In this document: positions 32,735 through 61,661 of the stretch, one piece after another
Layout: each line of letters begins with the position of its first letter
Numbering within the stretch: the first letter of the stretch is position 1
NCBI GenBank assembly: GCA_902826455.1
Contig: CADEEV010000027.1
Coordinates: 1 to 61,661 of the forward strand
From: an uncultured Acidobacteriota bacterium
Lineage (GTDB): Bacteria; Acidobacteriota; Vicinamibacteria; Fen-336
Length of the DNA: 61,661 bases
Reading direction: 5' to 3'
Made by a program: the position numbers and the translations under genes
The notes under the pieces: generated by a model
What the model was told of the DNA's origin: nothing
Databases searched by the model: none
Seen by the model: the letters and a program-made list of their open reading frames with translations, nothing else

Positions 32735-32809
32735 GGGCGCTTAACTCAGCGGTAGAGTGCCACCTTCACACGGTGGAAGTCGCAGGTTCGAATCCTGCAG
32801 CGCCCACCA
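32735..32809 (+). tRNA. tRNA-Val (anticodon CAC)
   Basis: 75-nt cloverleaf with a 7-bp acceptor stem (GGGCGCT with AGCGCCC), D arm containing AGCGGTAGAG, anticodon stem CCACC/GGTGG with loop TTCACAC (anticodon CAC, reading GTG), T arm with GGTTCGAATCC, discriminator A and an encoded CCA. It is the intact tRNA at the left border of the island; its 3' end is repeated at 35577-35602. Confidence 0.95.
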
Positions 32810-57865: not shown

Positions 57866-58074
57866 CCATCCCTCCACGTGCGCCTCATGATGACAGGTGA
57901 AGGCACGTCAAAAAAAGAGCAACACCGGTCGTCTTTCTGGTAGCCTCCGCCTACATCCGACAGACGATCAACCGGGCGCTCCCAGGCCATTTCCAGCTTC
58001 AGGAGGAAATCTGCACGAGCCCCGCGCTTCGGCCTTCTCGAGTCGCTCGGATGTGTACGGCAGGGAAGCCCGCT

Positions 58075-58605
58075 CTAGACTTCTGGTACCGCGTTGGTGT
58101 CGATGTCGAAGGAGTAGTCTCCCTTCTTGATCTTCCACCGGGCTATGCTGAACATTGGCCACGGAGCAGTGAGGCTGAGACTACGCACTTGCGAGTGTCG
58201 GTCCACGAGGGCCTGATACTCGGACTCAAAGTCTGCGAAAGGCTTCTTGGACGAAACGACCGCCGCCTTGCGAAACGCATCGCGGAGGATCGTGTACTCG
58301 GCTGCGGCGGGTACGAGCGCCGCGATCGCTTCGTCGATCTTGAGAGCCGACTCGAGCGCCGGAAGGAGGCCTGCTAGGAAGGCGGCCACCGCCACGAAGG
58401 TCTTTGCGCCTGGCACGTCCGACGACGTCAGGATGCTCCACGATGCCAACGCGCCGAGGACGACCGGAGCGCCCCTCATCACGACACGGATGAACCTAAG
58501 CGTTGACAGCCAGAGGTTGAATGTGGCGGCGGAATAGAGGCAGTTGTCAAACTGTCTCTGCGCTTCTTTCGCGAGTTCGCCAGCTTTGGTTGCCACGATG
58601 TTCAC
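58075..58605 (-). CDS. 2TM SLATT-like effector of a CBASS-type system
   Basis: 176-aa membrane protein. A helical N-terminal arm (1-40: AKEAQRQFDNCLYSAATF) precedes two TMs (about 41-60 and 68-88) and a helical cytosolic tail (LRDAFRKAAVVSSKKPFADF, SEYQALVDRH). This layout matches the SMODS-associated SLATT 2TM effectors, which are thought to form membrane pores when a cyclic nucleotide signal appears (established for related families; inferred here). The GTG at 58605 overlaps the CD-NTase stop (GTGA). It is less GC-rich than core genes. Confidence 0.75.
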   Translation of the reverse strand: MNIVATKAGELAKEAQRQFDNCLYSAATFNLWLSTLRFIRVVMRGAPVVLGALASWSILTSSDVPGAKTFVAVAAFLAGLLPALESALKIDEAIAALVPAAAEYTILRDAFRKAAVVSSKKPFADFESEYQALVDRHSQVRSLSLTAPWPMFSIARWKIKKGDYSFDIDTNAVPEV

Positions 58606-59480
58606 CCTAGTGAAATGTCAGTGCCGAAGATGTCTTGCCAATACAGTCCAGCCAGCACGCCGTCTTGGTTGCTCTCGGCCACGCAAGCCGCGACCGCCTT
58701 CCGGTAGGCCCTCTCGGCTTTTGGGGTAAAGGCGCTTCCAATGGGCTGCCACTCGCCGTAGGGGAGCCTCACTCGCCAGGGACCGGGCCTGCTTAGGTAG
58801 GCAAAGAAGTCACGGACCATCCAATCGTCGAACCAAAAGCTTTTCCGATGGCGATACGCCCAATCTCGGATGAACACGGTAGCCAGGATCTCAAGCCAGA
58901 AGGACTTCATCGGGACGTTGCAGTGGGTCTGCCATCGCTTCAGGTAACGGATGAGCCGGCGGAGCGCGCCGCCCGTCTCGTCATCTACCTGTTCTAGGTA
59001 GGCAAACTCATCCAATGGGAACGTGCGCCGGTATTGGCCGCCATCATTGCTGTCACAAGTTAGAAAGCCTCCGCCGAGCCGATGGAAGGCGGGAGCGACC
59101 TCCACGTCAAAGGACAGCGCAAACGTGACGGCCACGACTTGGCCATCACCACCTACGTCGGTCGAGGCGTAGGTGGACAGCACGACGTCCTTGACCTCCT
59201 GCAGCAGGGCAGACTGCTTGTTTCCCGTCCGGGCCTGGAACCGATGGTAGACCGCAGTGGGCAACGCGAAGAGCATGTCGACATCGCGCGGCGGCGCAAT
59301 CTGAGTCTTCTTCCCCCACGATCCGATTGCCCAGACGTTTGCGAGTTCTGACTCGGCGCCGTAGTAGTGCCGGTTCAGCGCCTTCGCAATCCGCGCAAAT
59401 CTCGTCGCCGCGGCAGCCGCGTCCGCGCTCTTCAGCATCAGCCGGCCATGAAACTCCCTGAACCGCTGCGCTTCCTGCAA
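58602..59480 (-). CDS. CD-NTase (CBASS cyclic-oligonucleotide synthase)
   Basis: 292-aa SMODS-type nucleotidyltransferase. Active site: GSWGKKT (53-59), DVD (66-68) as the first two metal ligands and a third Asp in SFDVEVAPAF (D125), followed by a helical domain with LRRLIRYLKRWQTHCNVPM. It would make a cyclic di- or tri-nucleotide on phage infection. The start is a TTG at 59480 with GGGAGG 7 nt upstream and a conserved-looking FREFHGRLML N-terminus; an ATG at 59438 is the alternative. The linked 2TM gene makes this a minimal two-gene CBASS operon without Cap2/Cap3 or HORMA/TRIP13 genes. Confidence 0.88.
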   Translation of the reverse strand: MQEAQRFREFHGRLMLKSADAAAAATRFARIAKALNRHYYGAESELANVWAIGSWGKKTQIAPPRDVDMLFALPTAVYHRFQARTGNKQSALLQEVKDVVLSTYASTDVGGDGQVVAVTFALSFDVEVAPAFHRLGGGFLTCDSNDGGQYRRTFPLDEFAYLEQVDDETGGALRRLIRYLKRWQTHCNVPMKSFWLEILATVFIRDWAYRHRKSFWFDDWMVRDFFAYLSRPGPWRVRLPYGEWQPIGSAFTPKAERAYRKAVAACVAESNQDGVLAGLYWQDIFGTDISLG

Positions 59481-59640
59481 GACGGAGCCTCCCTGAACGC
59501 GAAACGTAGCATCTGTGAGCGGAACTCGCCATCAGCTAAGAGCATCTGGGGCGCAAACGGCAAACAAAGCTCGAACGTCGCGTAGTTGGGTCCAACAGAT
59601 GTGGACCCCGCTGGCAGGAAGCAGGTGTACGCTTTTGGAC

Positions 59641-60747
59641 ATGAGGATCAAGGGGGTCGTAGACACGATCGACGTAGCGCAAGCAGCCGGGGCGATCTTC
59701 GGCAAGGCGGGTGCGGCTGCTGCCATCGGGCATCACGGCGATCTAGCGCGCCATCTAGTAGATCCAATGATGGCGGCATACAGGCCCTTTCTTGAAGACG
59801 AAGCTCGGCGCGATCGGATGATGGCGGAACTGGCGGGACCGACATTCAGGACCGCCAATTTCTTCGCCTCCATCGCCCCACCCTTCGAATCAATGGTGTC
59901 GCTCAACGATGCCTTGGCTGCCTACACGGGCAGCCTTGAAGAGGCCGGGCGCGCGCTTAGCTCCTTCTCGGAAAATCAGAAAGCCATGATGGGCCTCATC
60001 CCAGGGGGCACGCACTGGTCGTCCATTGGCCCGTCAATCGAACGCCTCGGCCTCAATGAGATCGGCGCAGCCATCGGCCTACATCAGGACGTTGCGGACC
60101 GGCTGGGGCAAGGCTTGTCGGTGCTCCTCGATTCGGCTGCGCGCTTCTACCGGAGCGAGGCCCCAAGGCTCGGGGCGTTGCCTCGCGGCATTGTTCAGGC
60201 GCCATCTCGACAGGTTGCACTCCATGTTAGGGCTCTGGAGGCGATTTCCTACGCAGAGTCAGAGGAGCCCGAAGAGAGCGTCGGAAATGCGGACGAGAAG
60301 GACCGCCTCGCAGTTGCCCTTGAGGCTCTCAGTCCCCATCTCGTTCGAAGATGGCGCGGCGGTCATGAAGCGGTGGCATTTCGTGGATCGGATAGCGCTG
60401 CACACGCGGCACTTTCGTTCCGTGAGGTTCTGAAACTCACCCTCTACCATCTCGCTCCGGACAGGGACGTAAGCGCCTGGTGTGCATCCGTTGAGCGCCT
60501 TCTTGTCGGCAACAGGGTGTCGCGGGCTGACAGGTTCGACTTCATCTGTCGCGACTTGGCGACTCCGCTGCTAGCCGGCGTGTTGGAAAACGACCGCGCC
60601 ACGGCGCTGCAGCTTATTACCGTGTTCAACAAGGACGTTCATGAAGAGCGAAGAGCCCTGACCGACTTCCAGCTAAGAAGGATGGCTCATCGAGTTGACC
60701 AGGCGCTGCTGTTCCTGTTGGACACGGCGCAGGATCGGGATCGATAG
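59641..60747 (+). CDS. Protein with pPIWI-associating nuclease-like C-terminus
   Basis: 368-aa soluble protein. The N-terminal half is helical with no motif I recognise. The C-terminal 125 residues (LSPHLVRRWRGGHEAV, SFREVLKLTLYHLAPDR, VSRADRFDFICRDLA, ITVFNKDVHEERRALTDFQL) resemble, from memory, the domain called predicted pPIWI-associating nuclease. It stands divergent from the CBASS operon with a 160-bp gap. The ATG at 59641 is chosen; an ATG at 59599 is in frame. No PIWI gene is in the window. Confidence 0.6.
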   Translation: MRIKGVVDTIDVAQAAGAIFGKAGAAAAIGHHGDLARHLVDPMMAAYRPFLEDEARRDRMMAELAGPTFRTANFFASIAPPFESMVSLNDALAAYTGSLEEAGRALSSFSENQKAMMGLIPGGTHWSSIGPSIERLGLNEIGAAIGLHQDVADRLGQGLSVLLDSAARFYRSEAPRLGALPRGIVQAPSRQVALHVRALEAISYAESEEPEESVGNADEKDRLAVALEALSPHLVRRWRGGHEAVAFRGSDSAAHAALSFREVLKLTLYHLAPDRDVSAWCASVERLLVGNRVSRADRFDFICRDLATPLLAGVLENDRATALQLITVFNKDVHEERRALTDFQLRRMAHRVDQALLFLLDTAQDRDR

Positions 60748-60920
60748 CGTCGAGTCTCATCCTTGGGGAATGGAGCCGACGGTGGGACTTAGGCGGCCTA
60801 GCGCTCGCCTCCCACTTTCAGCTTGGCAAAGAGGCTTGGCAGAGCAAAAGGACTATCCTGGTCGCGCCGTACTACGGCGCTGATCCCGGCGGCGGTGGTG
60901 GTGGTTGGCCGGCCGAATTC

Positions 60921-61184
60921 GTGAAGCGTATCCGTCGCGCCACCTACCCGCAGTACATGTGGGACGTACTGCCCTCGAGCAAGGACGGAGAGTCTTCCGT
61001 CCTACGCCTCGACCACATCATGCCGGTGGGCCAGGATCCGGCTGGGTATGAGCTGACAGAATGGGCGCTCTCCGATCAAGGACTAGCGCTCTTGGATGAC
61101 TGGATTTCTTGGCTAGTTGCAGGTGGGCTTTCGCCGGCCCTCTACGACCTTCGATCTACGATGGCGGAGTTGTTTTCCGAATAG
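60921..61184 (+). CDS. Unknown protein, N-terminus uncertain
   Basis: Starting at the only canonical start (GTG 60921) this gives 87 aa: KRIRRATYPQYMWDVLPSSK, then the HIMPVGQDPAGYELTEWALS segment and ALLDDWISWLVAGGL. The frame stays open about 75 codons further upstream with plausible protein sequence (GEWSRRWDLGGLALASHFQL, TILVAPYYGADPGG) but without ATG, GTG or TTG. An ATA at 60744 overlaps the previous stop (ATAG) with AGGA 9 nt before it. Probably paired with the preceding gene. Family unknown. Confidence 0.45.
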   Translation: MKRIRRATYPQYMWDVLPSSKDGESSVLRLDHIMPVGQDPAGYELTEWALSDQGLALLDDWISWLVAGGLSPALYDLRSTMAELFSE

Positions 61185-61248
61185 GAAAAATTGGTTCGGC
61201 CGCCATCAACGTCTGGGATCCGAACCCAAGTCCGAACGGGGTCAGGTC

Positions 61249-61661
61249 CTACTGTGGCAGGAACTCCGGCTCCCGCACTCTCTGGCGGTCGAGCAGGAAA
61301 CTGAAGTCGGTGCCATACGCCTGCCGGTAGCCGTGGCATCCCATGCATCCGCCCGCCAAATAGCCCCTCCCCTTGTAGAAGACGTTCTGGAAAACCGGGA
61401 AGCCCGGCTGCGGCCGCGGGTTTAGGTAGGCCGTATCAGGGTAGATGAAGTCGGTCATCTTGCTAGCGGCGTGAGAGAGCTGGCCACTAAACCGCTGATT
61501 CGCAGGGGGAGCTTCGATGATCACATTCGCGGCGTAGTAGATGCCCGGATCCTCTGGGCCGTCGTAGTGGACCCCAGGCTTCTTGTCGAGCGGCACCCAC
61601 TGCACGCTGACTAGTCGATAGTGGCTAAAGGGCGAGGCTGGGCTCGCCTGGCGGATGGCGG
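61249..61661 (-). CDS. Heme-binding CxxCH protein, C-terminal part (runs off window)
   Basis: The C-terminal portion of a larger protein whose frame continues past the right edge of the window. A canonical c-type heme site CMGCH lies in GGCMGCHGYRQAYGTDFSFL near the end. Upstream are HYRLVSVQWVPLDKKPGVHY and a YYAANVIIEAPPANQRFSG segment, as in secreted cytochrome-like oxidoreductases. The GTG at 61605 is only an internal codon if the upstream frame is used. It marks the return to core-like sequence after the defence island. Confidence 0.7.
   Translation of the reverse strand, partial: AIRQASPASPFSHYRLVSVQWVPLDKKPGVHYDGPEDPGIYYAANVIIEAPPANQRFSGQLSHAASKMTDFIYPDTAYLNPRPQPGFPVFQNVFYKGRGYLAGGCMGCHGYRQAYGTDFSFLLDRQRVREPEFLPQ

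What the first reader, a model, noticed from the sequence alone, without database searches (positions are those of the whole stretch)
59641..61184. Divergent pair next to CBASS: pPIWI-associating-nuclease-like protein plus unknown partner
Facing away from the CBASS operon, a 368-aa protein with a C-terminal domain like predicted pPIWI-associating nucleases is followed at once by an ORF of unknown family. No PIWI/RE partner is present. The pair may be a stand-alone defence or toxin system sharing the intergenic control region (59481-59640) with CBASS.
Basis: inference. Interest (0 to 1): 0.68.

Follow-up and report, generated by a model that had tools for sequence, protein, structure and literature searches.

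The report
Lone defence gene beside gene fragment
Next to an anti-phage CBASS operon lies one intact gene of a known, untested defence-associated family, and the 'partner' gene behind it is a broken-off end of a gene from an unrelated two-gene system, so the proposed pair is not real.

Summary
The 368-aa ORF (59641-60747, +) is real. Its C-terminus (aa 228-358) is a full-length match to Pfam PF18165 (pP_pnuc_1, 'predicted pPIWI-associating nuclease'; 52.7 bits, cut-off 26.3). Predicted structures show an all-helical four-helix-bundle domain, not a restriction-endonuclease fold. HEPN RNases are among the structural matches, but so are unrelated bundles, and the HEPN RX4-6H arginine is absent. 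No Piwi domain (PF02171) was found in the genome. PF18165 genes are scattered one at a time through defence islands: beside CBASS, retron/RT, restriction-modification, short-Argonaute and Thoeris-type genes. Eight other SMODS loci lack it, so it is a separate module from this CBASS. The 'unknown partner' (60747-61184) has no usable start codon before 60921. It matches only about residues 115-240 of four full-length 240-256-aa relatives, each the second gene of a two-gene unit whose first gene weakly resembles Panacea (SocA) antitoxins. None of those loci has PF18165. It is a 5'-truncated remnant, with the junction within about 41 bp of the first gene's stop. Verdict: a solitary member of a known family next to unrelated debris. 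Toxin or effector action is plausible but untested.

The parts
59641..60747 (+). Intact 368-aa PF18165 (pP_pnuc_1) protein; helical N-terminal region (aa 1-205) plus conserved C-terminal domain
60322..60714 (+). PF18165 domain (aa 228-358); residues D251, S259, R261, R295, H334 and R351 invariant across the family sampled, H255 nearly so
60748..60788 (+). Inferred recombination junction between the PF18165 gene and the truncated gene
   Evidence: homology of ORF2 to relatives begins at its residue 15
60789..61184 (+). 5'-truncated remnant of a 240-256-aa gene (gene B of a Panacea-like two-gene unit); first ~115 codons and the upstream gene A absent from the window
59481..59640 (.). Divergent intergenic region between CBASS and the PF18165 gene; no sigma-70-like site found
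58602..59480 (-). CBASS SMODS nucleotidyltransferase (neighbouring, separate module)
   Evidence: PF18144 2e-29; PADLOC cyclase 1.9e-95
58075..58605 (-). CBASS SLATT/2TM membrane effector (neighbouring, separate module)
   Evidence: PADLOC 2TM effector 3.5e-52

Best explanation
This is a defence-island segment built from unrelated pieces: a complete two-gene SMODS-SLATT CBASS, a solitary PF18165 gene, and the 3' stump of a third system. Shown: the domain assignment, the all-helical prediction of the domain, the truncated state of ORF2, and the absence of a fixed partner or fixed CBASS link. Inferred: the PF18165 protein works on its own as an abortive-infection type effector. In this reading its variable N-terminal helical part senses infection or mediates assembly, and the C-terminal helical domain with its invariant Asp/Ser/Arg/Arg/His/Arg set is the toxic part, most simply an HEPN-like metal-independent RNase. 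ORF2 is what remained when the PF18165/CBASS block joined, or replaced, a Panacea-like two-gene unit.
For: PF18165 above the curated cut-off over its full length. AlphaFold2 models all-helical: P0001 domain and family domain with mean pLDDT 89. HEPN structures recur among matches to aa 228-365: 2hsb Z 8.4, rmsd 3.1, 113 aligned; HepT 7bxo Z 7.2; Csm6 Z 5.8. Six polar residues invariant across divergent subfamilies. Relatives sit beside many different defence genes: CD-NTase + NucC, retron RT-Toprim I-C, type I specificity subunit and Hypoth_Ymh HEPN, RT + exonuclease, PaeR7I R-M, type I R, ABC-3C + patatin, short-Ago partner, ThsB-like and MTase_I neighbours. No PF18165 at 8 other SMODS loci. 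ORF2 truncation: relatives at E 4e-38 to 6e-18 match only through their C-terminal half; gene A is present in 4/4 relatives and absent here.
Against: No assay exists. HEPN-like Z-scores (6-8) are within the range of unrelated helical bundles, and in the better domain model designed bundles, catenin and FAT domains score as high. Profile-profile comparison with HepT and Ymh alignments gave no signal. The RX4-6H arginine is replaced by Phe. P0001 also lacks the family's common Arg at 254 (Ala there). Neighbour counts were not a controlled enrichment test: distant control ORFs also included defence genes.
Confidence: 0.45

Rival explanations
1. The PF18165 protein is a non-catalytic accessory or regulator that tunes or is guarded by whatever defence system lies next to it; here it would modulate the divergent CBASS.
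For: It sits beside very different systems without a fixed partner; in G088 it lies directly upstream of a CD-NTase + NucC CBASS on the same strand; the domain resembles generic helical bundles.
Against: CBASS loci of this SMODS type lack it in 8 of 8 cases; invariant polar and charged residues argue for a chemical role.
Confidence: 0.25
2. One reading: P0001 and ORF2 form a two-gene toxin-antitoxin or defence pair.
For: ORF2 follows at once on the same strand and is real coding sequence.
Against: No usable start codon, half of the gene missing, relatives pair with a Panacea-like gene, PF18165 absent in 4/4 relative loci.
Confidence: 0.04
3. The PF18165 domain is a DNA nuclease that once worked with prokaryotic Argonautes, now orphaned here.
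For: The family's name; short-Ago partner genes among neighbours of the common PF18165 subfamily.
Against: No Piwi in this genome; all-helical prediction without a PD-(D/E)XK core; most relatives sampled lie next to other systems.
Confidence: 0.1

Closest known systems
PF18165 pP_pnuc_1 (predicted pPIWI-associating nuclease)
   Same: Full-length domain match above the curated cut-off; invariant D/S/R/R/H/R residues kept
   Different: Divergent member (about 19-33% identity to relatives); its N-terminal region differs from the common 'YNxxVRxxN' coiled-coil subfamily; no Piwi partner in the genome
HEPN superfamily RNase toxins (HepT, Csm6, Ymh)
   Same: Predicted helical bundle; conserved His before the last helix at the position of the HEPN motif histidine; Ymh HEPN gene adjacent in one relative
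   Different: Arg of RX4-6H absent; no sequence-profile similarity
CBASS SMODS-SLATT operon (neighbour)
   Same: Adjacent and divergent; same low-GC block (about 60% against 70% overall)
   Different: CBASS operons elsewhere are complete without PF18165
PanAT (Panacea/SocA-like antitoxin + toxin; PMC8832971)
   Same: Full-length relatives of ORF2 are the second gene behind a weakly Panacea-like first gene
   Different: Panacea score below the curated cut-off (14.8-19.8 against 25.7 bits); here only a 3' fragment remains

Membership tests
PF18165 pP_pnuc_1 | Score above the curated cut-off across the domain | tested here: met
   52.7 bits against 26.3, profile 2-132/133
PF18165 pP_pnuc_1 | Nuclease activity | not testable with these tools
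   No assay; no paper found by name or accession
pPIWI/Argonaute system | Piwi-domain partner gene | tested here: not met
   No PF02171 match in the whole genome; pPIWI-RE-specific models were not searched
HEPN superfamily RNase | HEPN four-helix fold | tested here: inconclusive
   HEPN Z 6-8.4 but tied with unrelated bundles
HEPN superfamily RNase | RX4-6H motif | tested here: not met
   VFNKDVH in P0001 and VFNDGTH in the family: Phe at the Arg position; His invariant
PD-(D/E)XK restriction-type nuclease | alpha/beta core with catalytic D...(D/E)XK | tested here: not met
   Domain models are all-helical, with at most isolated bridge residues
CBASS component | Conserved adjacency to SMODS-SLATT | tested here: not met
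   0 of 8 SMODS relative loci carry PF18165; one other CBASS (NucC type) has it upstream
Two-gene toxin-antitoxin pair P0001 + ORF2 | Both genes intact and co-occurring elsewhere | tested here: not met
   ORF2 is a 3' fragment; PF18165 absent at 4/4 relative loci
PanAT (for full-length relatives of ORF2) | Panacea domain above cut-off in gene A | tested here: inconclusive
   E 0.0016-0.055, below the curated cut-off, in three of three tested

The most novel reading that the evidence does not exclude
PF18165 proteins are a widespread single-gene abortive-infection system whose C-terminal domain is a variant HEPN-like (or new) RNase with an unusual active site, and which repeatedly settles beside many defence systems including CBASS.
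Probability: 0.3. Interest if true: 0.55.

Novelty: new member of a known kind. Interest (0 to 1): 0.3.

Why it matters
PF18165 is a broadly distributed domain with a name that asserts nuclease function but no experimental report in the library searched. The locus helps separate the domain from Argonautes and from CBASS, and gives six invariant residues to test. The ORF2 remnant exposes a candidate undescribed Panacea-like gene pair, one copy of which lies beside DISARM genes.

Tried and rejected
Close relatives of P0001 by peptide patterns in genome and viral contigs: none. Viral-contig scans with three further alignments found no relatives and one alignment was too diverse to use. P0001 in phages: none. 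ORF2 in plasmids, phages, viral contigs and the own genome: none besides itself. Profile-profile comparison of PF18165 with HepT and Ymh: no signal, decoys equal. Codon-usage test of ORF2 was uninformative because the whole block is atypical for the host. Direct or inverted repeats bounding the block: none of 16 bp or more. tRNA at the junction: none, the only one is at 32735. PADLOC scan of neighbours of the common PF18165 subfamily against distal controls: both contain defence genes, so no clean enrichment figure.

Full report
Setting. The window is a whole contig (C27) of a 5.26-Mb draft genome. A PF18165-bearing contig of a genome in the same phylum (L004, the same contig as L023) is labelled Acidobacteria. 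The block from about 57.6-57.9 kb to the contig end has about 60% GC against 70% for the window, and the genes of the block have GC3 of 0.63-0.76 against 0.92-0.94 in glgP and zwf. This fits a horizontally acquired defence block.

First gene. 59641-60747 encodes 368 aa. The in-frame extension back to 59515 lacks a coding-like codon-position GC pattern, so ATG 59641 is the likely start. Residues 228-358 match PF18165 pP_pnuc_1 over its full length at E 4.3e-14, well over the curated cut-off, and weakly the PADLOC Aga_Nuclease model. It is the only PF18165 copy in the genome. Relatives are rare and distant: 7 other genomes of 396 in the phylum sample with P0001, none in the same order, and none in 397 further genomes of the phylum of a PF18165-bearing Stappia genome. 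Against divergent relatives D251, S259, R261, R295, H334 and R351 are invariant, H255 nearly so.

Fold. AlphaFold2 with 62 sequences gives an all-helical C-terminal domain, with pLDDT around 90 over about residues 221-280 and 341-368 and lower (62-85) between. The family-level model of the domain reaches mean pLDDT 89 and is also a helical bundle. Structural matches for P0001's domain are rich in HEPN proteins (AF_0298 Z 8.4, rmsd 3.1, 113 aligned; HepT, Csm6, sacsin HEPN, Z 5.8-7.2). For the family model HEPN entries tie with unrelated four-helix bundles. No Foldseek match has a significant E-value. The position of the invariant histidine before the last helix is like HEPN, but the motif arginine is Phe in P0001 and in the family consensus, and profile comparison gave nothing. 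The HEPN survey marks HEPN domains that lost the motif and suggests that some use alternative active-site residues (PMC3710099). So 'HEPN-like RNase' is a working hypothesis, while a restriction-endonuclease fold is not supported.

Context of the family. PF18165 genes occur singly beside many systems: CD-NTase + NucC CBASS in L115, RT-Toprim retron I-C in L117, type I specificity + Ymh HEPN in L113, E1-E2-like and SLFN/AlbA in L111, RT + exonuclease in Leptospira, PaeR7I in Phaeobacter, type I R in Leptolyngbya, RT + polymerase in Dinoroseobacter, ABC-3C + patatin in Sphingobium. In the large subfamily with a coiled-coil N-terminus, immediate neighbours include type I methyltransferases, short-Ago partner proteins and ThsB-like TIR proteins. 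Distal control ORFs also contain defence genes, as expected inside islands, so this is context and not a measured enrichment. No Piwi domain exists in the window's genome.

Link to CBASS. Eight loci with SMODS relatives (L161-L168; six with SLATT next to SMODS by annotation or match) carry no PF18165. The window's CBASS is therefore a complete two-gene system without it, and the divergent arrangement looks like co-residence. No sigma-70-like promoter was found in 57900-61661, which says little because other promoter types are not covered.

Second ORF. The frame 60699-61184 has no ATG, GTG or TTG before 60921. A search of 396 genomes of the phylum found four clear relatives (E 4e-38 to 6e-18). 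They are 240-256 aa long, and ORF2 aligns only to their residues from about 115 onward. The missing first half is not elsewhere in the window. In all four, the gene lies directly behind, and overlapping or abutting, a 268-290-aa gene that gives weak, below-cut-off matches to SocA_Panacea in the three tested. One such unit lies beside DISARM DrmA/DrmB. No PF18165 gene is near any of the four. Homology in the window starts at 60789, 41 bp after P0001's stop, which places the junction. ORF2 is thus debris of a different system.

Conclusion. What is shown: a solitary PF18165 gene, next to but not part of CBASS, followed by a truncated fragment. What is inferred: stand-alone effector function, possibly RNase. 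The finding's claimed pair is rejected. The gene itself is a new, divergent member of a known but untested family.

Noticed in passing
L179 7780-9322, L180 7127-8774, L181 6099-7696, L182 7662-9195: Candidate undescribed two-gene unit: gene A (268-290 aa, weak SocA_Panacea) followed by gene B (240-256 aa, no family), same order in 4/4 loci, one beside DISARM and one beside what look like type I restriction genes.
   Followed up: partly
L115 7024-9984: A PF18165 gene lies directly upstream, same strand, of a CD-NTase (PDLC00803) and a NucC effector: a CBASS with a possible extra first gene.
   Followed up: partly
L113 5009-8602: Type I specificity subunit, Hypoth_Ymh (HEPN) and PF18165 genes overlap in one apparent operon.
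   Followed up: no
L023-L102: A widespread, well-conserved ~295-aa PF18165 protein with an N-terminal YNxxVRxxN coiled-coil repeat occurs in many phyla as a single gene.
   Followed up: partly
window 58075-59480: Complete two-gene CBASS: SMODS cyclase plus SLATT/2TM membrane effector.
   Followed up: yes
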